Assembly: GCF_012935695.1 (NCBI RefSeq)
Contig: NZ_CP052859.1
Coordinates: 1,405,001 to 1,469,000 of the forward strand
Origin: Pseudomonas sp. ADAK18
GTDB lineage: Bacteria > Pseudomonadota > Gammaproteobacteria > Pseudomonadales > Pseudomonadaceae
Reading direction: 5' to 3'
Length of the DNA stretch: 64,000 nt
In this document: positions 16,140-41,711 of the stretch, piece by piece
Numbering within the stretch: the first letter of the stretch is position 1
How the letters are laid out: each line of letters starts with the position of its first letter
The notes under the pieces: generated by a model
What the model was told of the DNA's origin: nothing
The model's database searches: none
What the model saw: the letters and a program-made list of their open reading frames with translations, nothing else
Made by a program: the position numbers and the translations under genes

Positions 16140-16190
16140 TCAGGGGGACGTGGCGGCCTGGTAGCCGACCAGGCTGTTTGGTTGTTTGAG

Positions 16191-16995: not shown

Positions 16996-17010
16996 CCAAA
17001 ACCGCCTACC

Positions 17011-19313: not shown

Positions 19314-20045
19314 CTATGGGTATCTGATGGCCGGGAGAGGGAGCAGGGCGCCGGCGCGGTGGTAATCGTGTGGCAAGCCGATGTCGATAAAGCTGCCCGA
19401 GGTTTCAAACCCCAGGAGTGGAGTACCGTTGTCCATCAGTTTGGGCAGCAGTTGTTCTTCCAGAGACAGGACCTGGCCGGGCTGATAGTCCAGGTGGTTC
19501 AGGCTGGTGCGGCGGACCCAGTACACCCCGCCATTTGCCAGTGCCCCGAGCTGGCCGCGTTGGGATGCGAACCTGTGGATATGACCATCGGTGTCGATAT
19601 CAATGCCCATGTAGCGATCGGCTTCGCTCGCTCGAAATAGCGCCAGGCAGACGCCCGCGCGATGTTGTTCGGCAAACTGCTGGAAGGCCATCAGGTCTAG
19701 GGCGAACCAGGTGTCGCCATTGAGCAGCAGGAAACTCTCCTCACCCTCCGTCAGATGCTCAAGGGCCAGCAGCAGTCCCCCGCCGGTGCCCAGGGGCTGT
19801 GATTCGAAGGCATACGCAATCGGTACCCGGCGATAGCCGTTACCGAAGTGATCGACGATCACGTCACCGCGATACCCCACCGACAGGATGAAGCGCTCGA
19901 TTCCCTGGTCTATCCAGTAGTCCAGTAAGTACTCGAGGAACGGCCGACCTTCGATCGGGGCCATGGGTTTGGGAACATCGGTCACGACACTGCGCAAGCG
20001 GGTACCGAGGCCTCCGGCGAGAATCACAGCGGTACGTGTTTTCAT
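19314..20045 (-). CDS. hddC: HddC-like D-glycero-alpha-D-manno-heptose-1-phosphate guanylyltransferase
   Basis: This 243-residue nucleotidyltransferase has the N-terminal pyrophosphorylase loop AVILAGGLGTRLR (residues 6-18), KPMAPIEGRPFLEYLL, and a LLNGDTWF metal motif. HddC joins D-glycero-alpha-D-manno-heptose 1-phosphate with GTP to make GDP-heptose, used in LPS, capsule or natural-product glycans. The assignment is supported by the GHMP kinase of HddA type encoded 15 bp upstream on the same strand. Start ATG 20045 with AGAGTCCCTT upstream. Related nucleotidyltransferases with other sugars cannot be excluded from sequence alone. Confidence 0.75.
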   Translation of the reverse strand: MKTRTAVILAGGLGTRLRSVVTDVPKPMAPIEGRPFLEYLLDYWIDQGIERFILSVGYRGDVIVDHFGNGYRRVPIAYAFESQPLGTGGGLLLALEHLTEGEESFLLLNGDTWFALDLMAFQQFAEQHRAGVCLALFRASEADRYMGIDIDTDGHIHRFASQRGQLGALANGGVYWVRRTSLNHLDYQPGQVLSLEEQLLPKLMDNGTPLLGFETSGSFIDIGLPHDYHRAGALLPLPAIRYP

Positions 20046-21685: not shown

Positions 21686-22744
21686 ATGAATGATGTTATT
21701 CAGTTTGTTCAAGTTCAAAGTTCTTGTAATAACCCTTTGATTCATGCTGAGTTACCAAAGGCTATATACATAGAACTGACAGATCGCTGTAACTTGACCT
21801 GTCCGATGTGCCGCTGCAGTCCGGTAAAAGGCAATATCCTGCCTTTGCCATTGTTCAAGGAAATGGCCGCAACGTTATTTCCCGGCGCCACGTTTGTGGA
21901 CCTGCGTGGCTGGGGGGAGAGCACCATCATTCCGGGCTTTCTCGACTACCTCGATGTGGCGTTGGCCTACCCGGTCAAGATCAAGCTGATCACCAATGCC
22001 GTGGTACGCAAGCCGTCAATGTGGCAGCGCCTGGGCCAGGAGGGCATTACGGTCGGGGTGTCGTTCGACGCCGCCACCGCACCGTTGTTTCGCGAGTTGC
22101 GAGGGGGTGCCAATCTCGAGCACGTCATGGCCAATCTGCGGCTGCTTACCGCTGCTCAACGAGAGGCGGGCCATGATCCGGCGGAAAAGCTTTATCTGTG
22201 CGTGACCATCAGCGGGCGCAATCTCGACGAGCTGGAAGACATCATTGCCCTGGGCATGAGCCTTGGCGTGCGGCGCTTTAAATTCGAACCATTGTGGGCA
22301 CCTGACGATGATCCCAATCGCCTGGAGTTCCACGCCGAACGAGTAGCGACGGTCATGCGGCGGCTGACGGCGCTGCGACGCCAGCACGACCTGCAGATTG
22401 AACTGTCGGCCGCACTCTCCGAAGCCAGCATCCAACCCAAGGCGATCCACAAGGTCTGTATCCATCCCTGGCAGTACCTCTACATCAACAGCCGTGGGCG
22501 CCTGGGCTTTTGCGATCACCTAAATGGCCGTGATGAATTCACCTTTGGCAGTTGGCAGGAAGGCACCTTCGATCAGTTCTGGAACGGTGCCGACATGCGC
22601 CAACTGCGTGCCGAACACATGCAACGCCTGGGGGGCGAGGCAATCAAGCGTTGCGCAGACTGCAATTGGTGTTACGAGCGGCGCTATATGGATCTTGAAG
22701 ACTGGCTAGAGCCCGAATGGGCCAACTACAGGGTGACCCTATGA
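21686..22744 (+). CDS. Radical SAM protein with SPASM-type C-terminal domain
   Basis: A 352-residue protein with the radical SAM 4Fe-4S motif CxxxCxxC at Cys35, Cys39, Cys42 (DRCNLTCPMCR). Its C-terminal cysteine set (Cys258, Cys276, Cys323, Cys326, Cys329) fits a SPASM or twitch auxiliary-cluster domain. In butirosin biosynthesis the SPASM-type enzyme BtrN oxidises 2-deoxy-scyllo-inosamine; this protein could do the equivalent step, but it is about 100 residues longer than BtrN, and SPASM enzymes do many reactions, including peptide maturation. It is first in the unit, with AAGGGGCG upstream of ATG 21686. The first ~100 bp are unusually AT-rich compared with the rest of the gene. Confidence 0.8.
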   Translation: MNDVIQFVQVQSSCNNPLIHAELPKAIYIELTDRCNLTCPMCRCSPVKGNILPLPLFKEMAATLFPGATFVDLRGWGESTIIPGFLDYLDVALAYPVKIKLITNAVVRKPSMWQRLGQEGITVGVSFDAATAPLFRELRGGANLEHVMANLRLLTAAQREAGHDPAEKLYLCVTISGRNLDELEDIIALGMSLGVRRFKFEPLWAPDDDPNRLEFHAERVATVMRRLTALRRQHDLQIELSAALSEASIQPKAIHKVCIHPWQYLYINSRGRLGFCDHLNGRDEFTFGSWQEGTFDQFWNGADMRQLRAEHMQRLGGEAIKRCADCNWCYERRYMDLEDWLEPEWANYRVTL

Positions 22745-23562
22745 ACATCGACGACCTCACCCTCAACCCGCCCTGGCTGGCGCACTTCTATGACCCCGCG
22801 CTGTTTGATGCCAGCGCAGGCGACGCGGATTCAGCTGCGACCATCGGCTATTACCGCACCCGACTCGAAGGGCCACAGCGCAGCGTACTGGATATTGGCT
22901 GCGGCACTGGCCGTCTGGCCCTTCCCCTGGTGCAGGACGGGCATAGCGTACACGGCGTGGACATTAGTGAGCCGATGCTGGGTTACCTGGCAGCCAAGGC
23001 CGAGGGCTTGGATCCGGACGTCCGGACGCGATTGACCTGGGCTTGTGGCAGCGTGTTGGACATGCCCGTCACCCAGACCTTCGACGTACTGGTGGCGGCA
23101 GATGACTTTGTCACCCATTTCGACCTGGATGAGCTGGGCCGTTTCCTGGTCATTGCTCACCGTTGGCTGCGCCCGGGAGGCATGTTGCTGACCGATATGC
23201 GCGAGCGCTCACCCGCTCGCCTGGACGCCGCTGCGGCACCTTTTCCCAAGCCAATGCAGAGCCATGGCCTGGCCAGTGGCATCGCGACCGAAAACGGCCC
23301 GCGCTACGCGGCAATGATGGGCTGGGAAGAGTACGACCCCCACAGCCGTTGGTTGGTCAGTCATCAGTTATTCAGCTTTATCGATCCACTGGGCCAGGAA
23401 GAACGACGCAACTGGAAGACTATCCGTCAACGTAACCACAGCAACGCTGAGTTCATCGAAGCCGCGCATCAGGCTGGCTTCAAGGTTGAACAGGCCACCG
23501 GTCGTGGTCCGCAGGGTTCGCTGGGTGAACAAGGCGGCTTTTTCCTGCTGGTGCAGGCGTGA
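22741..23562 (+). CDS. Class I SAM-dependent methyltransferase
   Basis: A 273-residue Rossmann methyltransferase. Motif I is visible at residues 49-59 (VLDIGCGTGRL), then an acidic loop (VHGVDISEPML) and motif II region DVLVAADDF. The target atom (O, N or C) is not evident. It starts at ATG 22741, overlapping the radical SAM stop as ATGA, so the two are translationally coupled. In the cluster context it would methylate the sugar or cyclitol product; this is inferred from position only. Confidence 0.85.
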   Translation: MNIDDLTLNPPWLAHFYDPALFDASAGDADSAATIGYYRTRLEGPQRSVLDIGCGTGRLALPLVQDGHSVHGVDISEPMLGYLAAKAEGLDPDVRTRLTWACGSVLDMPVTQTFDVLVAADDFVTHFDLDELGRFLVIAHRWLRPGGMLLTDMRERSPARLDAAAAPFPKPMQSHGLASGIATENGPRYAAMMGWEEYDPHSRWLVSHQLFSFIDPLGQEERRNWKTIRQRNHSNAEFIEAAHQAGFKVEQATGRGPQGSLGEQGGFFLLVQA

Positions 23563-24650
23563 GTGCCAGGCTAAGGCTGATCTGGGTGGTGCCCTCACTG
23601 GCCGGTCTTGGAGGCAGTGAATACGCTGCCGTGACCTTCGCTCGCCTGGTGGCTGGCGATGGACATCATTTGCGGCTGTTGACCGGGCCGCAAGTACACC
23701 CGGCGTGGCGTGAATTGTTGCAGGTCGAGGGCCTGACGTTGATTGAGGACCCGTCCGGCAGCCCCCAGGCACTGTGCGAAACCACCGAGCGCCTGCTTGA
23801 ACACCAACCAGCGGACCTGATCCAGTTCATGCCCCTTGAGGAGCACTGCCTGGCCTGGTTGCGCAAGGCCCTTCCAGTTCCTGTCATTGGTTGGGAACCC
23901 ACCGATCTGAGCCCACAGTGCTGGTGGTTGCCTGCGGCCTTGAAGACCCAAATCCATGATCTGAATGCCTTGCTCGTACTGAACCCCTGCGCCGCCCGGC
24001 ATGCTCGCGAACACTATGACTACCGGGGCCCGGTGACGGTGTTGCCCAACACCCTGAACGGTGTACCGGCCAAGATATCGGCTGATCTGCACGGTGACCC
24101 GGTGGTGGGCTGTATTGCGCGTTTATCGGCAGAAAAGGGCCTGGAATACCTGTTGGCGGCATTCTCGTTGTTGCTCGTGCGCTGCCCGCGGGCCATTTTG
24201 CGTTTGTGGGGTGAGGGTGAGGACCTCCAGCGTCTGGAGAATCTGGCGAAGATGCTGGGTATTGAGTCACAGGTGCAGTTTGTGGGCGGGTTTGAGCCGT
24301 TCAGCGGGATAGATGAGGTGGCCGCGTCCGCTGATGTGTTTGCCTTGAGCTCGCTGTTCGAAGGGGCCCCGGTGGCCTTGCTGGAGCTGGCCGCCAGGGG
24401 CCGGCCGGTGGTTGCCTCGCGGACCTCGGGAGCACGCTGGGTGTGCGGCGAAGACTATCCGTGGCTGCCTGCTGTCGGTGACACCCGGGCCATGGCCGAT
24501 GCCCTGGCGGATGCGCTCAACGGCCAAGGCCGCGAAACCCTGGGTGAGCAGTTGTACCAACGGTTTCATCGACAGTTCGCTGCCCGCCCGGCGTTGGCCG
24601 CGCTCAATGCCGCGTATGCCGACGTACTGTCAGCCGGAGTCCGGTTGTGA
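23559..24650 (+). CDS. GT4-family glycosyltransferase
   Basis: A 363-residue GT-B glycosyltransferase. The N-terminal half begins RLIWVVPSLAGLGGSEYAA (acceptor domain). The C-terminal half carries GCIARLSAEKGLEYLL and the EX7E donor site, Glu268 and Glu276 in EGAPVALLELAARGRPVV. In 2-deoxystreptamine clusters a GT4 enzyme (BtrM/NeoM) adds N-acetylglucosamine to the cyclitol, later deacetylated by a PIG-L enzyme; the next gene is exactly such a deacetylase. Start is GTG 23559 overlapping the previous stop (GTGA). Donor is uncertain; GDP-heptose from the divergent hdd genes is an alternative to UDP-GlcNAc. Confidence 0.85.
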   Translation: MSARLRLIWVVPSLAGLGGSEYAAVTFARLVAGDGHHLRLLTGPQVHPAWRELLQVEGLTLIEDPSGSPQALCETTERLLEHQPADLIQFMPLEEHCLAWLRKALPVPVIGWEPTDLSPQCWWLPAALKTQIHDLNALLVLNPCAARHAREHYDYRGPVTVLPNTLNGVPAKISADLHGDPVVGCIARLSAEKGLEYLLAAFSLLLVRCPRAILRLWGEGEDLQRLENLAKMLGIESQVQFVGGFEPFSGIDEVAASADVFALSSLFEGAPVALLELAARGRPVVASRTSGARWVCGEDYPWLPAVGDTRAMADALADALNGQGRETLGEQLYQRFHRQFAARPALAALNAAYADVLSAGVRL

Positions 24651-25354
24651 ACGCCGTTGGCGGTACCTGGTTGCTGGCGCCTCACTGTGACGACATTGCC
24701 TACTCCCTGGCCGGCCGGCTGTTCTCTGGAGTGGAGGGGAGGCGGCGCATGCAGTTGCTGACGATTTTCTCCCGCAGCCGTTTTGCCCCCTACGCCCCTT
24801 ATGCGACCACCGAAGCGCAAATCACTGCATTGCGCCAAGACGAAGAGTCGCGTTTCTGTGCCGCCCTGCACCTGGAACACGACTGCCTGGACCTGGCCGA
24901 AGCGCCGCTGCGGGGCTATCTCGATGTCGACTCGCTGTTTGCCGAAGACGGCGTTACCCCAAATGACCCAATACTGGAGTGCCTGGAGCAGCGATTGCGC
25001 CAGCGCCTGGAGGTTGCCGCCCCCACCAGGGTTTTTGCGCCCTTGGGAATCGGTGGCCATGTCGATCACCTGATCACGCGCGCTGCTGCGCAACGGGTAT
25101 TCGGCGGCGTCTGCCCGCTGTTGTTCTACGAAGACTTGCCCTATGCCGGCGAACTGCAACCCGACGAACTGACCCGTCAATTGTCCCGTGATGCCCAAGG
25201 CTTGCGACCGTTGCTGACACCTCTTGGTGATTGGTTGCCGGACAAGCTGGAGCAGTTGGCCGGATACGCCTCCCAGGTGGCGCCCAAAGACCTGGAATCG
25301 GTAGTAACCCATGCTCATTTGATTGGAGGTGAACGTGTCTGGACCCTTGGCTGA
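24647..25354 (+). CDS. PIG-L/LmbE-family N-deacetylase
   Basis: A 235-residue protein with the zinc and catalytic motif APHCDD (His13, Asp15, Asp16; usually PHPDD or PHxDD) and the second motif GGHVDH with His138 and His141. The family removes N-acetyl groups from GlcNAc-containing compounds, including the paromamine precursor in neomycin and butirosin pathways (NeoD/BtrD step). Start GTG 24647 overlaps the GT4 stop as GTGA. Its position directly after a glycosyltransferase supports a glycosyl transfer plus deacetylation pair. The Cys in place of Pro within the first motif is unusual. Confidence 0.85.
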   Translation: MNAVGGTWLLAPHCDDIAYSLAGRLFSGVEGRRRMQLLTIFSRSRFAPYAPYATTEAQITALRQDEESRFCAALHLEHDCLDLAEAPLRGYLDVDSLFAEDGVTPNDPILECLEQRLRQRLEVAAPTRVFAPLGIGGHVDHLITRAAAQRVFGGVCPLLFYEDLPYAGELQPDELTRQLSRDAQGLRPLLTPLGDWLPDKLEQLAGYASQVAPKDLESVVTHAHLIGGERVWTLG

Positions 25355-26144
25355 TGTGTGCATTTTGACGTTTGCTGTCGATCGGCCCGAGGCGCTGGCG
25401 CGTTGCATTGCCAGCGTCGCCGCGCAGCAGGGCTCGATCCGTATCGAGCAACGAATTTTGTCCGAGCGTGCCGCGGCGCTGCGGGCGCATCCGGCATTGG
25501 CGCCCTGGCGTGACCGGGTGCAGTGGCAGCAACTGGCGGGGCAACCTTTCCAGGGTCCGTCTTCGGCACGCATGGCCCGTTTGCGCGCAACGGCGGTGGC
25601 CCAGGTAACGCAGCCACTGGTAGGTTTCCTCGACGATGACAATGAGCTTGAGCCCGAGCACCTGGATTCCCTTTGCCAACTGCTGCGAGACCCTGAACTG
25701 CAGGCGGCCCATTCCTGGCGACAGGTGCTCAACCCGGATGGTTCGGCATTTTTGTTCGAGCATTACCCGTGGCACGACGACCCGCGTGTAGCCCACAAGA
25801 TGTATCAGTGGGGCCTGGAACAAGGGGTTTTTGCGCCGGGCAGTCCGGTGATGCGGGACGGCGTCCGAGGGCCTGATTGCCCCGAAAACTGTGCCACCGT
25901 CGACATGAATGAATGGCTGTTTCGCACCGCATGCTTGCGTGGCCTGGGATTTGACGATCGCTTCAGTCAGTTTGAAGTCGAGCACCGGGTGGGCGAGGAC
26001 GACAAGCTGTTCCAGCGGGCCCGTGCCGAGGGCGTGAAGTTTGTGTGTTCGCAGCGCCCCACGGTGCGCTACTACTTGGGTGGGGTGTCCAATTTGCGCC
26101 TCACCAGCGGCCCGACCCTGGCTGTCGCCGGAGCCTGCTCATGA
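25335..26144 (+). CDS. GT2-family (GT-A fold) glycosyltransferase
   Basis: A 269-residue protein beginning VCILTFAVDRPEALARCIASV, the nucleotide-sugar-binding start of GT2 enzymes, with the metal-binding acidic cluster Asp100-Asp102 in VGFLDDDNELEPEHL. A C-terminal acidic stretch (FEVEHRVGEDDKLFQRA) fits the base or acceptor region. It probably adds a second sugar to the cluster product. Start is GTG 25335 with GGAGGTG just upstream; this overlaps the deacetylase gene by 20 bp. A TTG at 25323 would displace the ribosome site. Donor and acceptor unknown. Confidence 0.8.
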   Translation: MSGPLADVCILTFAVDRPEALARCIASVAAQQGSIRIEQRILSERAAALRAHPALAPWRDRVQWQQLAGQPFQGPSSARMARLRATAVAQVTQPLVGFLDDDNELEPEHLDSLCQLLRDPELQAAHSWRQVLNPDGSAFLFEHYPWHDDPRVAHKMYQWGLEQGVFAPGSPVMRDGVRGPDCPENCATVDMNEWLFRTACLRGLGFDDRFSQFEVEHRVGEDDKLFQRARAEGVKFVCSQRPTVRYYLGGVSNLRLTSGPTLAVAGACS

Positions 26145-27418
26145 ACCGCCTGGCGCTCCACGGCGGGGTACCTGTGCGTTGCGAGCCCTGGCCGCAATGG
26201 CCACAGTCCACGGTGCAATCCGAACAGGCGCTGCTGACGGTGATGCGCAGCGGGCGTTGGTCGGTCAGCGGCCTGGAAACCGATGGCAGCCCGGCCTGGG
26301 ATACCCGGTTCGCCCAAGCGTTTGCCCGTTACAACGGCGTGGAGTGTTGTGTGCCCACCGCCAATGGCACCAGTGCCTTGATGTCATCCATGCAGGCCTT
26401 GGGGATCGGCGCGGGCGACGAAGTTATCGTGCCGGGTATGACGTGGGTTGCCTGCGCCAGTGCAGTGCTGGCGATCAATGCAATCCCGGTCATTGTCGAC
26501 ATCGATCCGCTGTCCTTGTGCCTTGACCCGCGTGCCGTGGAAGCGGCTATTGGCCCGAGGACCCGAGCCGTCATGGCCGTGCATTTGTACAACGCGATTG
26601 CCGACCTGGATGCCTTGCTGGCCCTGACCCGGCAGCACGGCCTGCACCTGATCGAGGACTGTGCCCAGGCCCATGGTGCCCTGTGGCGTGGTCGGCGTGT
26701 AGGGAGCATCGGTACGGTGGGCACTTTCAGCATGCAGAACGGCAAGGTGCTGACCAGTGGTGAAGGCGGTGCCTGTATTTGCGACGACCCGCAACTGGCC
26801 GCGCGTATCTATCGTCTGCGCTCGGACGGCCGACGACTGGCCAGCCAGCCGGTGCCGTCCGGTCATATGAACCTGGAGGAGGGCGGCCCGGGGTTTGCCC
26901 AGAACTTCTGCCTGAGTGAGCCCCAGGCGGCGATTCTGCTCTGCCGCCTGGAAGACCTGGACCAGGAAAACGCCCAGCGTGCGCGACAGGCCCAGACGTT
27001 GCGCAGGCACTTGGAGGAAATCGGCGGATTTGGCTTCCAGCACTCAGCCCCAGGTACCGAGGCGACCACCCTCTACCACTTCCCTATTCGGCTGGAGGGG
27101 CCGGAGTTTGACGGCGTGGATGTCGAACAGGTCTGCCAGGCATTGTCTGCTGAGCTGGGATGCTGGGTGCATCCGACTTACCCGCCGATGGATGAATTTT
27201 CTTTGCTTGCCCCGGGGCTTTCACGGCGTTTGTTGGCGCCGCCTCGGGTGCCGCAACCGTTGCTGGGTGCCCGCAAGGCTCGTCGGCAACATGTGGTGTT
27301 GGCCCATTGGCTGTTTTTGACTGACAGCCACGCCATGGCCCAGATAGCCGACGCTTTTGCCAAGGTCAAACAGCAGGCAGCGAGCTTGCGCGTGCGCCAA
27401 GGAGAAGGACAATTATGA
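26141..27418 (+). CDS. DegT/DnrJ/StsC-type PLP aminotransferase (inosose aminotransferase-like)
   Basis: A 425-residue fold type I aminotransferase. The PLP lysine is Lys202 in FSMQNGKVLTSGEGGA, a motif that closely follows the L-glutamine:scyllo-inosose and 2-deoxy-scyllo-inosose aminotransferases (StsC, BtrR/BtrS, NeoB) rather than the perosamine-type sugar aminotransferases. These enzymes transfer the amino group of glutamine to the cyclitol ketone. The gene for a 2-deoxy-scyllo-inosose-synthase-like enzyme follows with a 4-bp overlap, which would supply the keto substrate. Start ATG 26141 overlaps the GT2 stop (ATGA). Confidence 0.85.
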   Translation: MNRLALHGGVPVRCEPWPQWPQSTVQSEQALLTVMRSGRWSVSGLETDGSPAWDTRFAQAFARYNGVECCVPTANGTSALMSSMQALGIGAGDEVIVPGMTWVACASAVLAINAIPVIVDIDPLSLCLDPRAVEAAIGPRTRAVMAVHLYNAIADLDALLALTRQHGLHLIEDCAQAHGALWRGRRVGSIGTVGTFSMQNGKVLTSGEGGACICDDPQLAARIYRLRSDGRRLASQPVPSGHMNLEEGGPGFAQNFCLSEPQAAILLCRLEDLDQENAQRARQAQTLRRHLEEIGGFGFQHSAPGTEATTLYHFPIRLEGPEFDGVDVEQVCQALSAELGCWVHPTYPPMDEFSLLAPGLSRRLLAPPRVPQPLLGARKARRQHVVLAHWLFLTDSHAMAQIADAFAKVKQQAASLRVRQGEGQL

Positions 27419-28593
27419 GTACCCCTCTGCATGAAACAACGGCTCGGCGCCCAGCACCGGCGCCTGCTGTGCAAACCCTGAGCTTCCGATTCGCTGACCA
27501 GACGATGGAAATGCTCCTGGGCTATCAGTACACCGAACAGATTGCCACGCGGGCCAGTGAGGACGCCGAACACATCATTCTGGTGGCTGACCGTCGGGTT
27601 TACGAACTGTGGGGCGCTCCATTGCTGAGCGCCCTGCAGCGCCACTTGCCGGTGACCTGCCTACTGGTAGAAGCCGATGAAGTCCACAAGACTTTGGCGG
27701 TATTGCAGAGCTTGCTCGATCACGCGGTGGCCGACGGCGCGACACGCCGTTCGGTGGTGGTGGCGTTTGGCGGTGGGCTGACGGGGAATCTGGCCGGTTT
27801 GCTTGCTGGCTTGCTGTACCGCGGTATTCGCCTGGTACATATCCCTACCACGCTGCTGGCAATGTCCGATTCGGTGCTGTCGCAAAAGCAGGCCGTCAAC
27901 GGAGCGAATGCCAAGAACATGTATGGCTTGTACCACCCTGCGACCTTGTGCTGCGTGGACGTGCAGTACCTGGAAAGCCTGCCACCGCAGGACTTTTCCG
28001 CCGGTGTGGTGGAACTGTGCAAGAACGGCTTGGCTTTCGATGTCGCCACAGTGCCTGAGCTCAAACGTTTGGCTGCTGACCCGTCACCTGTCGGCCGTAT
28101 CGACTTGGTGAAGCTGGGTATTCGGGCCAAGCAACGGTTGCTGCTGGACGATCCACTGGAGCATGACTTGGGCGTGGTGCTGGAATATGGACACACCGTC
28201 GGGCATGCCCTGGAGTTGGAAACCGGCACCTTGACCCACGGCCATGCGGTGGGGTTGGGCATGCTGGTGGCCGCCGCCATCGCCCGAGGGCGTGGCTGGT
28301 TGACCGAGCAAGACGAGCGCCTGCATGCCCAGTTGCTGGCCCGCAGCGGTGCGCCCTGCAGCTTGCCGTGGCCCGTGCCGTTCGACGCCGTCATGGCACG
28401 GGTTCGCCTGGACAACAAGCGCGGGCGTATCCCGGTGAGCGCCGGACACTACCCCTTCGTCCTGTTGCGTCGCCTCGGCCAGCCGGCCATGACCCAGGGG
28501 CAGCCGCTGGTGGGCGTGGAGGAAAGAGAAATTCGCCAGGCTTACGAAAAATTGCAGTCGGGGTATTACGCCGCCCTGGTGTTTGCCGAGTAA
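27415..28593 (+). CDS. 2-deoxy-scyllo-inosose synthase-like cyclase (dehydroquinate-synthase superfamily)
   Basis: A 392-residue sugar-phosphate cyclase. The NAD-binding segment reads VVVAFGGGLTGNLAGLLAGLLYRGIRLVHIPTT (shown across residues 116-148), followed by AMSDSVLSQKQAVN, close to the segment of BtrC/NeoC that distinguishes inosose synthases from AroB. Zinc ligands are Glu200, His260 and His277, and the VVELCKN segment (Lys203-Asn204) follows the inosose-synthase pattern. The enzyme would convert glucose 6-phosphate to 2-deoxy-scyllo-inosose. Its neighbour is the matching aminotransferase. An epi-valiolone-type synthase is a less likely alternative. Start ATG 27415 (ATGA overlap). Confidence 0.82.
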   Translation: MSTPLHETTARRPAPAPAVQTLSFRFADQTMEMLLGYQYTEQIATRASEDAEHIILVADRRVYELWGAPLLSALQRHLPVTCLLVEADEVHKTLAVLQSLLDHAVADGATRRSVVVAFGGGLTGNLAGLLAGLLYRGIRLVHIPTTLLAMSDSVLSQKQAVNGANAKNMYGLYHPATLCCVDVQYLESLPPQDFSAGVVELCKNGLAFDVATVPELKRLAADPSPVGRIDLVKLGIRAKQRLLLDDPLEHDLGVVLEYGHTVGHALELETGTLTHGHAVGLGMLVAAAIARGRGWLTEQDERLHAQLLARSGAPCSLPWPVPFDAVMARVRLDNKRGRIPVSAGHYPFVLLRRLGQPAMTQGQPLVGVEEREIRQAYEKLQSGYYAALVFAE

Positions 28594-28630
28594 CCCCACC
28601 GGCAGGTCTTTCGCGATAAGGAGTGTCGTG

Positions 28631-29986
28631 ATGTCTGAACTCAACGTTACCCTGGCCTGGCTGGATGAGCAGCGCCTGGCGAACGCCATCGACCAGGCGA
28701 ATCACCAGCAACGGCCCCTGTACATGATTGTCCTGGCGACCAAGCCTTGCTACATCAAGCTGGCGAGCCTGGTATTGGCCTGTGAGGCCGGGGAAGTGCC
28801 TTTTTTGTTGGTCGACAGCGGCCAACATTATGACGAGGCACTGACGCAGGCCAAGCAGGAGCTGGGCTATGAGCATTTGCTGGCGGTGATTTTCGGCATA
28901 CGGGGTTCGCTATTGATGCGCACCGCGCAGTTGGCAATCGGCATCGAGCAGCTTGATGCCCGGCTCAAGGCCGGTGGCATTCGCCAGCCCGTGGTACCGG
29001 TGGTGTCCGGTGATACGGCCACCGCAGCGATGTTTGCCCAGTTCTGGTACTTCGCCCATGGTGTGCGCAGTGTGCATGTCGAGGCCGGGTTGCGCAGTTA
29101 CGGGCCCCATGTCCAGGACTGGGAAAACCTTCATGACTTGACGCAACAGCGGCATTTTCATTGGCAGCGCTTTCGTGACGAGCCCTTCCCTGAAGGTGTC
29201 GATACCGCGTTGGCCAGCGTGGTCTGCGATCTATTGCTGGCGCCGGTGTGGCGCAATGTTGAACAGCTGCGCACCGAGGGTTACCACGAACAGCAGATTA
29301 GCCAGGTTGGCTCCTTGAGCAGTGATGCTGTGCGCCTGGCGTTGCCCCAAGCAGGGCGTAGCCAGATCTTCCAGCAATATCCGCAGCTGGCTCACGGCCG
29401 TTGGTTGCGGGTGGATCTGCACCGACGCGAGAGTATGACGGCGGATGCTTTGCGTGCCGTGTTACAGGGCTTGGGCAGACTCGCGGCGGATGGCATCCAG
29501 GTGGTGCTGATTCGCACCAACGCTTTTAACGGTGCCCTGGTTCAACATCAGCTCACTGATGTGTTGGACGAGGCTCGGTACCAGGGTGTGGTGGTGCAGC
29601 CAATGTGGCCACACTACACCGATGTCATCCACTTCCTCACGTCCAGCCATTGCCTGGCGTTGTACACCGACAGCGGTGGCCTGCAAGAGGAAGCCAATAT
29701 ACTCAGGGTGCCATGCCTGACCTGCCGCCTGAGCAGTGATCGCCCGGAAACGGTACTCGACGCCCAGACCAACTTGCTGCTGCCACCCCTGTCGGCGGAG
29801 TTTGTCCACCGGCACCTGAGTTGGGCGTTGGCCCAGCCACCCGCCACGGTCTGGCCCGGGCTCACGCGAACACAGCCGCTCTACGGTGAGGACGTGGGCC
29901 AAGGCATCGCTCAACTGCTCAAGGCCCACCCGGCGCCTGTGCCATTGGCAGGCGCACAAGCGCAGTTTCTGTCGCGGGGTGCCTGA
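28631..29986 (+). CDS. WecB-like (UDP-GlcNAc 2-epimerase superfamily) protein with divergent active site
   Basis: A 451-residue GT-B-fold protein of the UDP-GlcNAc 2-epimerase family: SGDTATAAMFAQF, VHVEAGLRS (first catalytic Glu), the HRRES histidine, and YTDSGGLQEEANILRVPCL with RPETV. The segment after VHVEAGLRS, which in WecB gives PEEANR with the second acidic residue, reads GPHVQDWENLHDL here, so ordinary epimerase chemistry is uncertain. It may hydrolyse or otherwise process a UDP-sugar, or bind one. ATG 28631 has AAGGAG upstream; gap to the cyclase gene is 37 bp. Confidence 0.72.
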   Translation: MSELNVTLAWLDEQRLANAIDQANHQQRPLYMIVLATKPCYIKLASLVLACEAGEVPFLLVDSGQHYDEALTQAKQELGYEHLLAVIFGIRGSLLMRTAQLAIGIEQLDARLKAGGIRQPVVPVVSGDTATAAMFAQFWYFAHGVRSVHVEAGLRSYGPHVQDWENLHDLTQQRHFHWQRFRDEPFPEGVDTALASVVCDLLLAPVWRNVEQLRTEGYHEQQISQVGSLSSDAVRLALPQAGRSQIFQQYPQLAHGRWLRVDLHRRESMTADALRAVLQGLGRLAADGIQVVLIRTNAFNGALVQHQLTDVLDEARYQGVVVQPMWPHYTDVIHFLTSSHCLALYTDSGGLQEEANILRVPCLTCRLSSDRPETVLDAQTNLLLPPLSAEFVHRHLSWALAQPPATVWPGLTRTQPLYGEDVGQGIAQLLKAHPAPVPLAGAQAQFLSRGA

Positions 29987-31873
29987 ATGAACCGCCCCGT
30001 GTTTTGCGCGGATGCTCGCCATTCTCCGTCGGCCTTGTGCGGCGGGCTCGACGGTGAAACCGGCGACCTGGCCTTATGGCTAGGGTCACTGTGCCGGGCG
30101 ATTGGCATCAACCCTGACAGTCTGCCCTCCCGACAACACACCCATACGTTGTGGTACGGCGAATTGTTCAACCGTGCGCAGTTACTGGAATGGCTGGGGC
30201 TGTCATCGCCGGCCCTGACCGACAGCGAGCTGCTGACCCGGGCCTTTCTGGCCTGGGGCGAGTCGCTGACCCTGAGGCGGATCAGTGGCAAGTTCGCCCT
30301 GGCGTATTGGAACGCCGAACATCAGCACCTGATCCTGGCGTGCGATGGCACCACCGAGGTCAATCTCTTCTATGGCCGTATCGGCAGCCATTGGTTGTTC
30401 AGTTCCGACTTTGCAGCTTTCCGGCCGTTGCACCGACATCTGGAGGTCGATCGCCAAACCCTCGGGTTGTTCGTGCGCTATGGCTTTGTACCTGCGCCCC
30501 ATACGTTTTATCGCGAAGTCCGCAAGTTACTGCCTGGGCACTGGGTTTCATTATCTGGTCGATCTGGCGCAGACGTAGCCGTGCAGCAGCCCTATGCATC
30601 GTCGTTATTTGCCTGCCAGCCGACGCCCCGGGTCAAGGTGGCCGAGGCACACGAGGCTACGCAAGCCTTCGAGAGCCGGTTGATGCAGTCCATCGCGGCG
30701 CGCCTGGACGGGACGACGACGGGAGCGTTTATGTCCAGTGGTTTTGACTCGACCCTGGGCGCAGCACTGTTGCAGAAAACCCTTGGCGAACCCATTCACA
30801 CGTTCACCGCAGGCTTTTATGGCATGCATTGCAATGAAGCTCCGGCGGCCAAGGCCATCGCCCATCACCTGGGCACCCTCCATCATGAAATCTACCTGGA
30901 TGACCGTGCATTAGCGGGGGCAGTCCATGACATTCCCAAGACCTATTCCGAACCGTTGGCTGACTCCTCGCAGTTGCCTTCCATGCTGTTGGCCCGGGCC
31001 GCGAGTGAGCACGTGAGCACGGTCTTTGCCGGCGATGGCGCAGATTGTGTGTTAGGCGAATACGCCCAGCGCCTGGACATGTACCGGGCGTTCGTACGTG
31101 CCCGTGCACTCGGCCCACGGCTCAGGGAGGCACTGACCGCAGGACTGTTGCTGGCCGAGCGCTGTTCGCCGCGCCTGGGAGGGTATGTGGCCAATCACCT
31201 GGCTCACCGGCTGGCCCTTGATGATCCGGGGCGTGATGCCTTGGAAGACGTCCGTGGCGTGTTGGCGGCTGAGGGCCTGGGGCAGGTCGAGCAAGTCCTT
31301 GGCGCCCGGGTATTGGACCCGGGGCGACTGGTATTGGGGGAGGCATCGACGGATATCCCCTGGCCAGGCCTTCAAGCACCGCCGCGCTTGTCGGTGCTGC
31401 TGAATCAGTTGGTGCAGGTGCAGGGCGAGATCCTCCTCGCACCGGTGATTCACAAGACTGTCGCGGCCTGTGCCAGGCAGGGCCTGCGTGTGGCCATGCC
31501 GTTTCTCGATGCCGGGCTGCTGGATTTTGCCAGCGGTTTGCCCCACCGCCTCAAGTACCGCAAGCACACCTCCAAGTGGCTGTTGCGCCAAGTGGCGTAC
31601 CGGCACATTCCCCAAGTGCTGCTGGACCGCCCGAAACTGGGTTTCAGTATCTGGCTCAGCCCGCTGCTGCGTCACCACCTGCGCGAGTGGGCCGAGCACT
31701 TGCTGGCGCCCGAACGGTTGCATAACGACGGCTTTTTTGACGTGGCACAAGTTCGCCGGGAATGGACGCGGTTGCTGCACCACGGGGAAAACTTCCGGGA
31801 GGAACGGCTGTGGTCGATCCTCATGTTTCAACAGTGGCTGGACACCAGCCGTGCCTTATCCCCTGCGGAGTGA
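29987..31873 (+). CDS. Asparagine-synthetase-B-like amide ligase lacking the glutaminase cysteine
   Basis: A 628-residue protein with an N-terminal Ntn-type domain (about 15-200) and a C-terminal ATP-pyrophosphatase synthetase domain. The ATP loop is SSGFDST (residues 250-256, a variant of SGGxDS) and the second motif FAGDGADCVLGEY replaces the usual Glu with Cys. The protein begins MNRPVF, so Cys2, the glutaminase nucleophile of AsnB, is absent. It therefore probably adenylates a carboxylate and uses an amine other than glutamine-derived ammonia, as beta-lactam synthetases and other AsnB-like ligases do. Substrates could be an aminosugar or the cyclitol amine; this is inference. Start ATG 29987 directly follows the previous stop. 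Confidence 0.78.
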   Translation: MNRPVFCADARHSPSALCGGLDGETGDLALWLGSLCRAIGINPDSLPSRQHTHTLWYGELFNRAQLLEWLGLSSPALTDSELLTRAFLAWGESLTLRRISGKFALAYWNAEHQHLILACDGTTEVNLFYGRIGSHWLFSSDFAAFRPLHRHLEVDRQTLGLFVRYGFVPAPHTFYREVRKLLPGHWVSLSGRSGADVAVQQPYASSLFACQPTPRVKVAEAHEATQAFESRLMQSIAARLDGTTTGAFMSSGFDSTLGAALLQKTLGEPIHTFTAGFYGMHCNEAPAAKAIAHHLGTLHHEIYLDDRALAGAVHDIPKTYSEPLADSSQLPSMLLARAASEHVSTVFAGDGADCVLGEYAQRLDMYRAFVRARALGPRLREALTAGLLLAERCSPRLGGYVANHLAHRLALDDPGRDALEDVRGVLAAEGLGQVEQVLGARVLDPGRLVLGEASTDIPWPGLQAPPRLSVLLNQLVQVQGEILLAPVIHKTVAACARQGLRVAMPFLDAGLLDFASGLPHRLKYRKHTSKWLLRQVAYRHIPQVLLDRPKLGFSIWLSPLLRHHLREWAEHLLAPERLHNDGFFDVAQVRREWTRLLHHGENFREERLWSILMFQQWLDTSRALSPAE

Positions 31874-31876
31874 CTC

Positions 31877-32923
31877 ATGACAGCGATTAAAACGGCTTTG
31901 ATCGGATGCGGCACGGTCTGTGATTGGCACCTGGAAGAACTGGTGAAATTGAAGGACCTGTTCAAGGTGCGCTGGCTCTGTGACAACGTCCCGGGCAAGG
32001 CGCAACAGTTGGTGCACAAGTGGCAAACCGGGCGCTGGACCGAGGACTATCAGCAGGTACTGGATGACCCCGAGGTCGAGTGCGTCTGGGTACTGACCCC
32101 GCCTTTCAACCACGCCGAGGTGGCCATCGCCGCGCTGCGGGCCAACAAACATGTTTTCTGTGAGAAACCCTTGGCCAAATCCTCTGTGCAATGCCAGGAG
32201 GTGGTGCGGGTGGCCGAGGACAGCCAGCGGGTGTTTCTGCTGGGATATCCGATGCGCTTCTCCGCCGACGCCGCCAACCTGCGCCAGGTGGTGCAAAGCG
32301 GCGTACTCGGCCGGCCGGCAGTGTTCCGTGATGTCTGGGCAGTGTGCAAGGGCTCGGACAGCCCGGCCATCCACGATGCTGAACTGGGCGGCGGCGTGGT
32401 CTTCGAACATACCCATTGGCTGGATTTCGTGACCTGGATGTTCGGCCCCGCACAAAAGGTCTATGCCTCCACCCGCAAACTCAAGGCGGGTCCTACCACT
32501 GCCCATGACACCTTGATCGCGGTGATCGATTTTGTCTCCGGTGACCAGGCCGTCTGGTCCGAGTCCTGGGCCGCCACCGGCATGGGTTGGGAGCCGCTAT
32601 GCGTGGGCCGCGCCGGGATCCGGCCGACCTTCGACGTGATCGGTGAGCGGGGCGTCCTGCAGTTTCCCAATGCCCGTGGAGAGAAGGTCTTGAGTCTGTA
32701 TCGCTTTGATGCGCCCGAGCAGCCGGTCAGTACCTGGACCTGGCAAAACGATTGGGGCACCAACGACGATGCGTTCCCCAATGAACATCGACATTTGTAT
32801 GACTGCATCCGGCACGGTACACCGCCCATTTGCCAGGCCCGGGACGGGCTGCAAGCGGTGCAGTTGGCCGAAGCCATTCTTGAGTCCAGCCGCAGTGGCC
32901 TGCCGGTATTTTTCCAGCAGTAG
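31877..32923 (+). CDS. Gfo/Idh/MocA-family NAD(P)-dependent oxidoreductase
   Basis: A 348-residue protein with an N-terminal Rossmann motif GCGTVCDWH (Gly10, Gly12, His18) and the catalytic EKP motif with Lys97 in FCEKPLA. The C-terminal half has the conserved FEHTHWLDFVTWMFG histidine segment (DxxxH equivalent). The family oxidises sugar or cyclitol hydroxyls, including inositol and scyllo-inosamine types. In this cluster it could make an additional keto group for amination, doing the NeoA-type step in parallel with, or instead of, the radical SAM enzyme. Gap to the preceding gene is 3 bp, with GCGGAGTG as ribosome site. Confidence 0.85.
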   Translation: MTAIKTALIGCGTVCDWHLEELVKLKDLFKVRWLCDNVPGKAQQLVHKWQTGRWTEDYQQVLDDPEVECVWVLTPPFNHAEVAIAALRANKHVFCEKPLAKSSVQCQEVVRVAEDSQRVFLLGYPMRFSADAANLRQVVQSGVLGRPAVFRDVWAVCKGSDSPAIHDAELGGGVVFEHTHWLDFVTWMFGPAQKVYASTRKLKAGPTTAHDTLIAVIDFVSGDQAVWSESWAATGMGWEPLCVGRAGIRPTFDVIGERGVLQFPNARGEKVLSLYRFDAPEQPVSTWTWQNDWGTNDDAFPNEHRHLYDCIRHGTPPICQARDGLQAVQLAEAILESSRSGLPVFFQQ

Positions 32924-32945: not shown

Positions 32946-35900
32946 GTGCAGCAATTCAATCAGATCGTGTCGGTGAATTTTCAGGGTGTGGTGGTGGTCT
33001 TCGGCCGTGAGCTGGCGGGCAAACAGGCTATCTATTTCGATGTACTTGGCCAGGACGTAGACAGCACCGACGATGACCTCGACTGGTCGGGCTTCACCCC
33101 GGTGGGGTTTACCGAGCAGGTTCGACAGGTAGGCATGAGCATCATCACCGTGGACTGCGAGGCATCGACCCTGATGCCGTCGACGGCGCCTTTTCGGGTA
33201 GTGACCGATCAGAAGTACATTTCGGTCATTCAGCAATCTCTGAGCGGTACCTTGTATGTCAACCGTTTTCGCCTGCTCAAGACCAAGTCCGGCACCGATC
33301 AGAAGACCACCGCCTACGTGCTATCGCCCGCCTGGGAGGTGCGTTACGCGCGCAGTCATAAGGAGGATGTACCGGCTGACAAGTCCGACAAACAGGACTT
33401 TCTGGACCCCGATGCCCAGCCCTTCCTGGAGCCGTCCCTTGAGCTGTCGATGATCACTGGTGTGACCGACGGTAATTTCGATGCGCTGTTGCTGCCGATC
33501 TCAGGCAGCGAGAGTTTCGCCTGGCAATTGCTCTCCCTGGATGGCGCCAAGACAGCCGTCCGGTTGTTCAACTTCCCGGCCACCGACAACGGCCTGTTCG
33601 ACGTGGCCGGCAAACCCGTCGGCAGTGACCTGCGCATACTGCCGGACAGCGTCTTCAGCGTGGCCAAGGCCGGCTCCACCGCTGCCCTGACGATCACCTC
33701 GGCGCCACGGGCGGTGACCTACGTCAAGCATGAGAAGGTGGTACAGCCTGACGGCTCTAGCATCGGCGTGCGCCGTGCGACCCGTGCCATGATTACCCTG
33801 ACGGTCGCCGATGGCACCGCTACCGTAGATTCGGCCATCAGCGTGAGCGGGACGATGGCTGATCTATCAGGGGTAATTGTGACCTCCAATATTGTGCCCG
33901 CCGAATTCGATTTGCGTTTTGATGGGGTTTCCAGTCTTGGACTGGTGCCGCCTGGCAGCGGTGCCAATCCGTTGGTAATCAACGGCCCCTTCGAGATCAC
34001 CCTGATGTTGGCGCCGGGGATCAAGGGCGATGGCCTCAGCGTCGTCGCAGGCGCGGCCCAGTCAGAGGAAAAGAATCTCGCGCCGTATGTGTCGATCGTT
34101 GATGGCGACAAGATTGAGGTGGGCTTTGGTAATGGCAGCGCCCGGGTCAGTTGCCGCACGTTGCATCAGGTGTTGTTCAACGAGGTGTGGACCGATCTGC
34201 ACATCCAGTACGCCGGCAAGGGCGACAACCCGTTCACCCTGACGGTCAACGACTCCTCGGTCCCTCTTACGCCGTGCACCACTGCGGCAGAGCCTTGCGG
34301 CACGCCGCTGGCCCTGGTCGGGGCCGCCAGCAAGGGCTTTGTGGGCGCGTTGAAAAAACTTGAAGTCAAGGTCGCGGGCACCAGTGTGGTGTTGCTGGAC
34401 TGCAACAGTGTGAACTACAGCGTCAACCCGCCCACCACCCTGAACCAGGCGGCATCTGCAGTGGTGGTGACGGTCACGGGGGCACGCCTGGAACCTTCGG
34501 CCTCGCCGGTCAACAGCGACATGAGTGGCGCGTTCTATATCGATGCCATGGGCCTGACCTATTACGCCGGCCTTGCCGGGTTTATCCGCCCGGATGCCGC
34601 AGCGTGCCTGATCGATGGCTCCGATGGCCTGCTGCATTTGTATTACCAGGGCGATAGCAGTTTGCTGACGGTGGCGCAATTTTCCACCCAGTCGGCGCGC
34701 GCCACCTTCACCGTGGACTGGACGACTCAATGGAGCAGCAGCGGGCTGAGGGCGGCGGCACTGGAACAGCCTTCAACGTCCGTGGCCCTGTATCGCGGCT
34801 GGGGCTGCGAGACCTGGGCGCCGGTTGGCGCGCGCTTGTTAGCGGCACCCGACACCACCCAAAGCGGCTTCCTGAACTTCGTTGCCCACCGGGTGGGCAC
34901 TTATATGAACGGTACGCAAATCACGGTCAGCGCTTCCAGCGTATCGGAGCTGTTGTGCGACATCAGCGTAAAAGCCGCGCAAGATGTGGGTACCGAAACC
35001 TGGCACGGCCTGCCACGGGACGTTGGGCAGTTGTCACAGATCTGGAACGGTGCTGGCTCCAACAACCCTGACGACCCGGATGTACTGAACCAGTCAAAAC
35101 CCTATTACGACTACGCCGCGAGCGCCCCAGCGGTGCTGATACCCACACTTGCCGGTGGCAACGGCAGCTTTTTTCTGTTGACCTCAGTGCCGCAGTTGCC
35201 GGTGACCCTGACGTCGGTGCAGGTCGCTGCCGGGGCTACCGCAGAGTTTGTCGTTATTGATGTGACGATCAAGGCGCCTCCTCGTTGGCCGGCTACCGCC
35301 ACTCTTAATCAGCACTGGCCCACCGTGCCCGCTGCACCGCGTACCTTGCTGGATGTGTTCGCCGGCAAGGCCAGCCATTATGACTACAGTGCCGTGACCA
35401 CGACAGGCAGCCGCGCCTATGGTCTGCCTATGAGCCTGGCGCGCTCCGACGAGCAAGTCAGCCATGTGCTGATGTTTGTGCGCGATGAGCAGAAGGACTT
35501 CTCGGTCACCGTCGCCCAGGGCAGCCGACCGGCTTTGTGCAATGTTGCTATCTGCGGGGTGAGCTTGACCGACGTGCCTCGTGAGCAGGCCGGGTTCGTC
35601 CGGGTACTCAATGGCGACGACCCGAGCTACCCATACCCCAGCGGTTATCAAACGGGCTTGGCGACATTGATTTACGCCTTGGGCAACGGTTTGAGCGCCG
35701 ATGTCGTCGACACCCCGGCGCCTGCCCCGGAGGGTGGCGCGTTTGCCTACGCGGGGTTGTTGCGGGTGCTGTTTCAGGGGCCAAGCTACGATGCACCGGG
35801 CATGGCCACTCAGGCATTGACCGCAGCGGCGGTGATCCAGGGTGCGCGCCTGGCCTTCCAGGGCCGTGACGATGCGCTTCGCGGCTCGATGCTGTTTGGT

Positions 35901-41684: not shown

Positions 41685-41691
41685 CCGTGCT

Positions 41692-41711
41692 GGAGCGAGC
41701 TTGCTCGCTCC
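41692..41711. terminator. Hairpin ending the large cluster, shared with the convergent araC-like gene
   Basis: GGAGCGAGC and GCTCGCTCC are perfect 9-bp arms around TT. The hairpin begins 8 bp after the 342-residue protein's stop and touches the stop codon of the minus-strand regulator. There is no T-run on either side, so it is either a REP half-unit or a factor-assisted end. Confidence 0.6.

What the first reader, a model, noticed from the sequence alone, without database searches (positions are those of the whole stretch)
21686..32923. Aminoglycoside-like (2-deoxystreptamine/paromamine-type) gene set in a Pseudomonas
Seen: overlapping co-directional genes for a radical SAM/SPASM protein, GT4, PIG-L deacetylase, an aminotransferase with FSMQNGKVLTSGEGGA, and a cyclase with AMSDSVLSQKQAVN plus the E/H/H zinc ligands. 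Known: BtrC/NeoC, BtrS/NeoB-type aminotransferase, BtrN, BtrM/NeoM and the PIG-L deacetylase together make paromamine in butirosin and neomycin pathways, in Bacillus and actinomycetes. Inferred: this cluster makes a cyclitol-containing pseudo-oligosaccharide, further methylated, glycosylated and acylated. I know of no described product for such a cluster in a fluorescent Pseudomonas.
Basis: partly seen in the sequence, partly recalled or inferred. Interest (0 to 1): 0.93.

Follow-up and report, generated by a model that had tools for sequence, protein, structure and literature searches.

The report
Heptose-linked aminoglycoside gene island in Pseudomonas
This stretch of a Pseudomonas genome carries a complete, movable set of genes that looks able to make a sugar-like molecule related to aminoglycoside antibiotics, apparently with a seven-carbon sugar attached; the molecule itself has not been identified.

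Summary
[quoted passage not shown] best dehydroquinate synthase 127.8), and it groups with BtrC against AroB at 100/99. The aminotransferase is closest to L-Gln:DOI aminotransferases. Corrections: (1) the unit spans about 22.4 kb and 15 genes (19,314-41,684): two divergent heptose-activation-like genes precede it, a 2,370-aa LamG protein and two small proteins follow; 4 of 398 Pseudomonas genomes carry it, at two sites at least. (2) The radical SAM protein belongs to a DOIS-linked family of its own, not recognisably BtrN. (3) The GT2 is homologous to one in hygromycin B-type clusters; of 80 DOIS loci, 9 of 9 with this GT2 hold heptose genes, against 1 of 71 without. Best reading: a heptosylated, amino-sugar-bearing 2-deoxystreptamine-type pseudo-oligosaccharide; nothing is shown biochemically. 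Another aminoglycoside-like cluster in P. fluorescens is already in print (PMC8719888). New variant of a known kind.

The parts
19314..20045 (-). HddC-like sugar-1-phosphate nucleotidyltransferase (predicted heptose-1-P activation)
   Evidence: Best NCBIfam model NF049965 HddC, 174.4 bits (curated cut-off 300, so below it); present in 3 of 3 other complete islands at 65-68%; an NTase domain 37% like it is fused to a DOI synthase in P0038
20061..21053 (-). HddA-like GHMP kinase (predicted D-glycero-D-manno-heptose 7-phosphate kinase)
   Evidence: Best NCBIfam model NF049969 HddA, 139.9 bits (cut-off 600, below it); homologue next to DOIS in hygromycin B-type loci L076, L028, L040, L031, L096
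21054..21685 (.). Divergent intergenic region, presumed promoter region
   Evidence: 632 bp gap between divergent genes; lies in the lowest-GC 2 kb bin of the window, 0.514; promoter role inferred
21686..22744 (+). Radical SAM protein with twitch/SPASM-type auxiliary domain, DOI-synthase-linked family
   Evidence: PF04055, PF13186; Cys 35/39/42 and 258/276/323/326; Cys172 in 42 of 42 relatives at 45% identity or more, in 0 of 78 more distant ones
22717..23562 (+). SAM-dependent methyltransferase (target unknown)
   Evidence: PF13649 1.3e-19
23559..24650 (+). GT4 glycosyltransferase, predicted HexNAc transfer to the cyclitol
   Evidence: PF13692; sub-cut-off BshA/MshA hits; role inferred from pairing with PIG-L
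24647..25354 (+). PIG-L-type N-deacetylase
   Evidence: PF02585 33.7 bits; nearest solved relatives are glycopeptide pseudoaglycone deacetylases, 31.6 bits at best; 29 of 80 DOIS loci hold a PIG-L homologue
25323..26144 (+). GT2 glycosyltransferase, predicted heptosyltransferase
   Evidence: Homologous to the GT2 of the hygromycin B cluster, 34%; 9 of 9 DOIS loci with it hold heptose genes, 1 of 71 without; DOIS-GT2 fusion P0103
26141..27418 (+). L-glutamine:2-deoxy-scyllo-inosose aminotransferase homologue
   Evidence: PDB 5w70 370.6, 5w71 316.5, 2c7t 315.1 bits; next kind 171.8
27415..28593 (+). 2-deoxy-scyllo-inosose synthase homologue
   Evidence: PDB 2d2x 212.6 bits vs 127.8 best DHQS; tree; residue map to BtrC incl. 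E257=E243
28583..29986 (+). Non-hydrolysing UDP-HexNAc 2-epimerase-like protein with the family's conserved motifs
   Evidence: PF02350 5.7e-34; GDT, HVEAGLRS, HRRE, DSGGLQEEA, RPET in the alignment
29987..31873 (+). Asparagine-synthase-like amide synthetase without an N-terminal Cys
   Evidence: PF00733 1.3e-60, GATase_7; SSGFDS at 250; ATG/GTG start kept in 3 of 3 relatives, CGG only at 18-20; nearest solved 7ylz and beta-lactam synthetase, 50.6 and 43.4 bits
31877..32923 (+). Gfo/Idh/MocA oxidoreductase, inositol-dehydrogenase-like (candidate cyclitol dehydrogenase)
   Evidence: IolG model 141.7 bits, cut-off 355; EKP motif at 96; PDB relatives
32946..40058 (+). 2,370-aa LamG-domain protein, next gene in the same run
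   Evidence: PF13385; 88% orthologues in the same 3 other genomes that hold this cassette and in no further one of 398; two more have 36-37% relatives; GTG start with AAGGAG before it
40088..40633 (+). 181-aa protein of unknown function
   Evidence: 77-78% identical orthologues at the same place in 3 of 3 other genomes compared; no Pfam family below E 0.07
40656..41684 (+). 342-aa protein of unknown function
   Evidence: 85-86% identical in 2 of 2 aligned, a third indicated by a match on the complementary frame; no Pfam family
41685..41729 (.). Right end of the island
   Evidence: In 4 of 4 relatives without the island, homology to the window begins at 41,728/41,729

Best explanation
A horizontally mobile biosynthetic island makes a small pseudo-oligosaccharide on a 2-deoxystreptamine-type aminocyclitol. 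Proposed order: the cyclase turns glucose 6-phosphate into 2-deoxy-scyllo-inosose; the aminotransferase makes 2-deoxy-scyllo-inosamine; a dehydrogenation (Gfo/Idh/MocA enzyme, or less likely the radical SAM protein) and a second transamination give 2-deoxystreptamine; GT4 adds a HexNAc (perhaps with stereochemistry changed at C2 by the epimerase) and PIG-L removes the acetyl; HddA/HddC, fed by a GmhA encoded elsewhere in the genome, make an NDP-heptose that GT2 adds; the methyltransferase and the AsnB-like enzyme add a methyl group and an amide; the radical SAM enzyme, with an extra Cys172, more likely epimerises or oxidises one carbinol. Enzyme family identities and the conserved unit are shown; every reaction, their order and the product are inferred.
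For: Cyclase. Aminotransferase. Heptose arm: HddA/HddC best models; gmhA and gmhB next to DOIS, GT2, rSAM and HddC-like genes in the cyanobacterium Moorena, and gmhA/gmhB hits in Oscillatoria too; hddA-GT2 directly after DOIS in a locus whose PhyH gene matches PDB 4xcb at 582 bits, taken as the hygromycin B cluster (that 4xcb is HygX is recalled); GT2-heptose association 9/9 vs 1/71; DOIS-NTase and DOIS-GT2 fusions; a GmhA-type gene elsewhere in the own genome, 207.7 bits. Mobility: different flanks in different genomes.
Against: No exporter, regulator or known aminoglycoside resistance gene was recognised in the 15 genes. The HddA, HddC, IolG and WecB models are all below their curated cut-offs. 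Own-genome GmhA is 1.75 bits under its cut-off. No gmhA/gmhB was recognised in the island itself. Only one aminotransferase, so 2-DOS needs it to act twice. The GT2-heptose loci come from only three lineages. The role of the LamG protein is unexplained.
Confidence: 0.65

Rival explanations
1. Plain paromamine/neomycin-type pathway, with the heptose-like pair and GT2 serving some other sugar.
For: DOIS, L-Gln:DOI aminotransferase, GT4 and PIG-L are all present; PIG-L homologues sit in 29 of 80 DOIS loci.
Against: HddA/HddC are the best models for the divergent pair and are kept in 3 of 3 other complete islands; GT2 tracks heptose genes; the rSAM is not recognisably BtrN.
Confidence: 0.15
2. Surface-glycan cluster: an aminocyclitol or heptose unit for lipopolysaccharide, capsule or exopolysaccharide rather than a free small molecule.
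For: Heptose, UDP-HexNAc epimerase, two glycosyltransferases and an AsnB-like protein resembling exopolysaccharide-linked ones (TIGR03108, 214.9 bits, cut-off 816.9); no exporter or resistance gene recognised.
Against: No flippase, polymerase or initiating glycosyl-phosphate transferase among the 15 genes; the core is homologous to antibiotic clusters.
Confidence: 0.15
3. The pathway product decorates, is carried by, or acts together with the 2,370-aa LamG protein.
For: Close LamG orthologues in the same 4 of 398 Pseudomonas genomes that hold the cassette, right after the last enzyme gene.
Against: LamG proteins of like length at 62-71% identity occur in other bacteria (Tateyamaria, Aestuariivita, Salipiger); comparing by eye the two lists of 120, only one unnamed contig (24,358 bases) besides this genome appeared in both the DOIS and LamG lists. 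Structure models too poor to say more.
Confidence: 0.1
4. The cyclase is a dehydroquinate or C7-cyclitol (epi-valiolone-type) synthase.
For: Same fold; aroB is its best NCBIfam model, 206.7 bits (cut-off 305).
Against: PDB ranking, tree and BtrC residue map; the genome has a separate AroB-like gene.
Confidence: 0.02

Closest known systems
Hygromycin B-type clusters (L076 Streptomyces hygroscopicus; similar L028 S. abikoensis, L040 Streptoalloteichus tenebrarius)
   Same: DOIS, DegT aminotransferase, HddA-like kinase and homologous GT2 side by side, gmhA-type gene nearby
   Different: No PhyH dioxygenase (HygX type) and no second DegT aminotransferase in the island; the radical SAM gene in the L076 cluster is not matched by our family's profile at 1e-5; our PIG-L and GT4 find no match at 1e-8 in L076, L028 or L040, though L076 has a GT4-family gene by Pfam
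Butirosin/neomycin/paromomycin/tobramycin core
   Same: DOIS, L-Gln:DOI aminotransferase, GT4, PIG-L
   Different: Heptose arm; rSAM not recognisably BtrN; no oxidase, second aminotransferase or resistance gene recognised
Aminoglycoside-like cluster of P. fluorescens strain Ps639 (PMC8719888)
   Same: Pseudomonas; DOIS-based
   Different: Reported with NeoL, NeoN, ParQ and NeoM homologues. The six other DOIS-bearing Pseudomonas genomes found here are probably of this type (inferred; Ps639 itself not compared); within 20 kb they match ours only in aminotransferase, DOIS and PIG-L, at 32-45%, and the three such Pseudomonas cyclases put in the tree (two of the six plus P. brassicacearum 48H11) fall in another clade with Photorhabdus
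DOIS loci of Oscillatoria PCC 10802 and Moorena
   Same: GT2, aminotransferase, DOIS, HddC-like, rSAM (54-55%), methyltransferase, PIG-L, GT4
   Different: Carry gmhA and gmhB, and (Moorena, scanned) a LegB-type dehydratase and PseC-type aminotransferase; no match to hddA, epimerase, AsnB-like or Gfo or LamG within the 10 kb flanks held
Rickettsia buchneri aminoglycoside cluster (PMC8770908)
   Same: DOIS cluster in a Gram-negative (passages read)
   Different: GMC oxidoreductase, exporters and a LuxR gene; no gene named as a heptose gene in the table passages seen; sequences not compared

Membership tests
2-deoxy-scyllo-inosose synthase | Closest characterised relative is a DOI synthase, with margin over DHQS and C7-cyclitol synthases | tested here: met
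   212.6 vs 127.8 (DHQS) vs 83.4 bits (4p53 'Cyclase', recalled as an epi-valiolone synthase)
2-deoxy-scyllo-inosose synthase | Groups with BtrC and antibiotic-cluster DOIS apart from AroB and other cyclases | tested here: met
   55-row tree, 100/99 on the branch between the outgroup of 15 and the other 40 rows
2-deoxy-scyllo-inosose synthase | Metal-site E/H/H, active-site Lys/Asn and the BtrC Glu243 position kept | tested here: met
   20 of 20 positions that I picked, mostly from the invariant columns, are identical in BtrC; Asn stands at the Glu243 position in the 7 AroB-type rows whose motif was found; roles recalled
2-deoxy-scyllo-inosose synthase | Makes DOI from glucose 6-phosphate | not testable with these tools
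   needs enzyme assay
L-Gln:DOI aminotransferase | Nearest solved relatives are this enzyme by a wide margin | tested here: met
   370.6/316.5/315.1 vs 171.8 bits
BtrN-type dehydrogenase | Radical SAM CX3CX2C plus twitch cysteines | tested here: met
   Cys 35/39/42, 258/276/323/326; twitch pattern recalled
BtrN-type dehydrogenase | Specific sequence kinship to BtrN | tested here: not met
   BtrN eighth of 15 hits, E 0.027; not among the 2 hits of the single sequence
Hygromycin B-type cluster | DOIS with heptose-activation gene and homologous GT2 | tested here: met
Hygromycin B-type cluster | HygX-type PhyH dioxygenase (orthoester formation, recalled) | tested here: not met
   no PhyH among the island genes scanned; present in L076 and L028
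Paromamine-type core (neomycin/butirosin) | DOIS, aminotransferase, GT4, PIG-L together | tested here: met
Paromamine-type core (neomycin/butirosin) | GT4 and PIG-L specifically orthologous to NeoM/BtrM and NeoD/BtrD | tested here: inconclusive
   31-37% local similarity to the Streptoalloteichus loci L053 and L069; weak PDB hits for PIG-L
HddA/HddC | Score above curated equivalog cut-off | tested here: not met
   139.9 of 600; 174.4 of 300, though best model in both cases
Antibiotic producer | Self-resistance or export gene in the cluster | tested here: not met
   none recognised; genome-wide FmrO search uninformative because the control rang nowhere

The most novel reading that the evidence does not exclude
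A previously undescribed branch of aminoglycoside chemistry, spread over Pseudomonas, cyanobacteria and, judged by cyclase and radical SAM relatives, Rhizobiales, Burkholderia/Trinickia, Chitinophaga and Sorangium, makes heptosylated deoxystreptamine glycosides with a dedicated new radical SAM enzyme; in Pseudomonas it travels as one 15-gene island with a giant LamG protein that works with the product.
Probability: 0.3. Interest if true: 0.85.

Novelty: new variant of a known kind. Interest (0 to 1): 0.64.

Why it matters
Identified deoxystreptamine aminoglycosides come almost only from actinomycetes and Bacillus (recalled). An open, 22 kb island with DOI synthase, DOI aminotransferase, GT4 and PIG-L in a tractable Gram-negative, whose further genes point to a paromamine/hygromycin hybrid skeleton, would give a new aminoglycoside scaffold and a direct test of the DOIS-linked radical SAM family and of the GT2 as a heptosyltransferase. 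The link to a 2,370-aa LamG protein, and the lack of a recognised resistance or export gene, suggest a use other than a conventional secreted antibiotic.

Tried and rejected
Rejected: AroB or epi-valiolone-type cyclase; radical SAM as BtrN, as the rSAM of the hygromycin B cluster, which our profile does not reach at 1e-5, or as a protein of the apramycin/tobramycin producer S. tenebrarius (no hit at 1e-5 in that genome); Ps639-type cluster as the same thing; anti-phage role (of 5 proteins scanned only the rSAM matched, a viperin-type radical SAM model at 33.7 bits); glutamine amidotransferase with N-terminal Cys for the AsnB-like protein: a TTG before CGG exists in the window, but it is CTG in the three relatives and the upstream start is kept.

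Led nowhere: structure of the LamG C-terminal 731 residues (mean pLDDT 62.5; no Foldseek match at E 1e-3 or better, best proaerolysin E 0.019 with probability 0.03, not used); structure of the 342-aa protein (pLDDT 35.9); FmrO-type resistance search (control empty); phylum-wide LamG search (2 of 398, this genome and G168). In the tree I had labelled L139 as AroB before building; it fell with the three 'other' rows, inside the outgroup. Tree rows were chosen by me: 13 of the 120 listed proteins, 40 loci, BtrC and the window; 55 in all.
Full report
WHAT IS THERE. Ten overlapping or adjoining genes run in one direction from 21,686 to 32,923. Pfam and NCBIfam scans give radical SAM with a SPASM/twitch-type domain, class I methyltransferase, GT4, PIG-L, GT2-like, DegT aminotransferase, DHQ-synthase-fold cyclase, UDP-HexNAc 2-epimerase, AsnB-like and Gfo/Idh/MocA. 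To the left and divergent lie an HddA-like GHMP kinase and an HddC-like nucleotidyltransferase. To the right, 22 bp after the last enzyme gene, begins a 2,370-aa LamG protein (GTG at 32,946 with AAGGAG before it), then two small proteins without a recognised family.

ONE UNIT. Searching 398 Pseudomonas genomes with the cyclase at E 1e-60 gave 10 genomes: the own one, three with 77-80% identity and six with 39-41%. The three carry all 12 genes hddC to Gfo in the same order at 65-87% identity. P. lactucae, found in the named collection, has them too, with rSAM, PIG-L, cyclase, AsnB-like and LamG each matched in two pieces, which may be draft errors. A 1,333-aa piece of the LamG protein was found in 6 of 398 genomes at E 1e-20: in the own one, at 88% in the same three, and at 36-37% in two that are not among the ten cyclase genomes. 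The 181-aa gene follows in 3 of 3 (77-78%); the 342-aa gene was aligned from two of them (85-86%) and in the third is indicated by a match on the complementary frame. The neighbours beyond are not shared with the window. In three of three genomes a CoA-transferase gene lies left of the island and a short-chain fatty-acid transporter gene right of it; left of it in P. lactucae is a PEP-mutase-family gene. In the window the left neighbour is a TonB-dependent receptor and the right neighbours are an HTH_18 regulator and a glutamine-synthetase-family gene, whose homology to four relatives without the island begins at 41,728/41,729. So the unit sits at two sites at least. The left end was not resolved to the base: none of the four relatives matched window 4,001-19,400 next to that point.

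CYCLASE. The best solved relative is 2d2x, DOI synthase, 212.6 bits; the best dehydroquinate synthase gets 127.8, 4p53 ('Cyclase', recalled as an epi-valiolone synthase) 83.4 and 5tpr 77.1. Against this, the best NCBIfam model is aroB, 206.7 bits, below its cut-off of 305; a hit to a DOIS model was not listed. Twenty of twenty positions that I picked (mostly invariant columns) are identical in BtrC, including E243 (recalled as DOIS-specific); the 7 AroB-type rows whose motif was found have Asn there. Overall identity to BtrC is 37%. In a 55-row maximum-likelihood tree the 40 DOIS-side rows, BtrC and the hygromycin B cluster's cyclase included, are split from the 15 AroB and other cyclases at 100/99; the window sits in a 13-row clade (99/98) with proteins from Pseudomonas entomophila, Rhizobiales bacterium GAS188, Burkholderia alba, Brasilonema, Moorea, Sorangium, Chitinophaga and unnamed sources, while three cyclases of the other Pseudomonas type fall with Photorhabdus, Trinickia and Roseateles at 100/100. 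The genome has an AroB-like gene elsewhere.

AMINOTRANSFERASE AND CORE. L-Gln:DOI aminotransferases lead the PDB list by about 140-200 bits over perosamine synthases. GT4 and PIG-L form the usual HexNAc-transfer/deacetylation pair (recalled), but their specific kinship to NeoM/NeoD is not established.

HEPTOSE ARM. HddA and HddC are the best models for the divergent pair, though below the curated cut-offs. In Moorena the DOIS gene is followed by an HddC-like gene, gmhA and gmhB; Oscillatoria has gmhA and gmhB matches too. Five actinobacterial loci have DOIS, HddA-like kinase and GT2 in a row; in one of them, S. hygroscopicus L076, the PhyH gene matches PDB 4xcb at 582 bits, which I recall as HygX of hygromycin B. 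[quoted passage not shown] The eight GT2 proteins aligned share LDDDN, GEDDK and YYLGG.SN motifs. Over the 80 loci, all 9 with this GT2 hold hddA, gmhA or gmhB at 1e-8, against 1 of 71 without (L093; Fisher p 4e-11, but the nine come from three lineages and some loci are cut short by contig ends). Two proteins from unnamed sources fuse DOIS to an HddC-like domain (37%, 107 bits) and to a GT2 (35%, 122 bits). A GmhA-type gene elsewhere in the own genome could supply the precursor (207.7 bits, cut-off 209.45). Hence GT2 as heptosyltransferase is an inference with several supports, not a demonstration.

RADICAL SAM. It is not recognisably BtrN. The radical SAM gene in the hygromycin B cluster lies at about 13.2 kb of L076, found by Pfam only (contig matched through), and was not reached by our family's profile at 1e-5, nor was anything in S. 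tenebrarius. Of the 120 relatives listed (378 found), several come from the same organisms as DOIS hits, and 13 picked by eye share a contig length with one. In the 42 relatives at 45% identity or more, Cys172 is invariant, as are 258, 276, 323, 326 and 329; in the 78 more distant ones Cys172 occurs in none (Asn in 52) and 323 is Phe in 70. I recall that HygY and NeoN use a Cys as hydrogen donor for epimerisation; by analogy Cys172 may be one. That is conjecture.

TAILORING. The epimerase keeps the family motifs, the Gfo/Idh enzyme its EKP motif; the AsnB-like protein keeps an SSGFDS loop but has no N-terminal Cys, which would fit an amide synthetase using an amine of the product. Order and targets are unknown.

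PRIOR ART. PMC8719888 (passages read) describes by prediction an aminoglycoside-like cluster in P. fluorescens Ps639, and PMC8770908 (passages read) one in Rickettsia buchneri. Paper searches listed, by title and abstract start, nothing on a heptose-linked DOIS cluster in Pseudomonas or cyanobacteria; only an open-licence library was searched and the other listed papers were not read. It is therefore filed as a new variant of a known kind: the DOIS core is known; this combination, and this mobile unit with the LamG protein, were not found described.

Noticed in passing
L006-L011 / L015-L020 (G204, G299, G002, G225, G292, G153): A second DOIS cluster type in 6 of 398 Pseudomonas genomes; two of these six cyclases, with that of P. 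brassicacearum 48H11, fall in a clade with Photorhabdus, Trinickia and Roseateles.
   Followed up: partly
window 32946-40058; L111:10645-17001; L112: Giant LamG protein family (about 2,370 aa), also at 62-71% identity in other bacteria such as Tateyamaria and Salipiger, function unknown; the distant relatives in two other Pseudomonas genomes stand next to a LysR-type regulator gene.
   Followed up: partly
L022 (Pseudomonas lactucae MAFF 301380): Five genes of the island match in two pieces each: draft errors or decay.
   Followed up: no
L042:9956-12461 (Streptomyces atratus): DOIS directly followed by a radical SAM gene of the same family, with no match to our DegT aminotransferase at 1e-8 within 10 kb; the rSAM may act on DOI itself there.
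   Followed up: no
P0038 and P0103: Natural fusions of a DOI synthase to a nucleotidyltransferase and to a GT2.
   Followed up: partly
L043, L074 (Planctomycetota), L070 (Clostridia), L084 (Acetivibrio): DOIS-side cyclases with no aminotransferase match at 1e-8 in the flanks held, two of them on long branches; possibly other functions.
   Followed up: no
window 17011-19227, minus strand: TonB-dependent receptor just outside the island, not at that place in the other island genomes.
   Followed up: no
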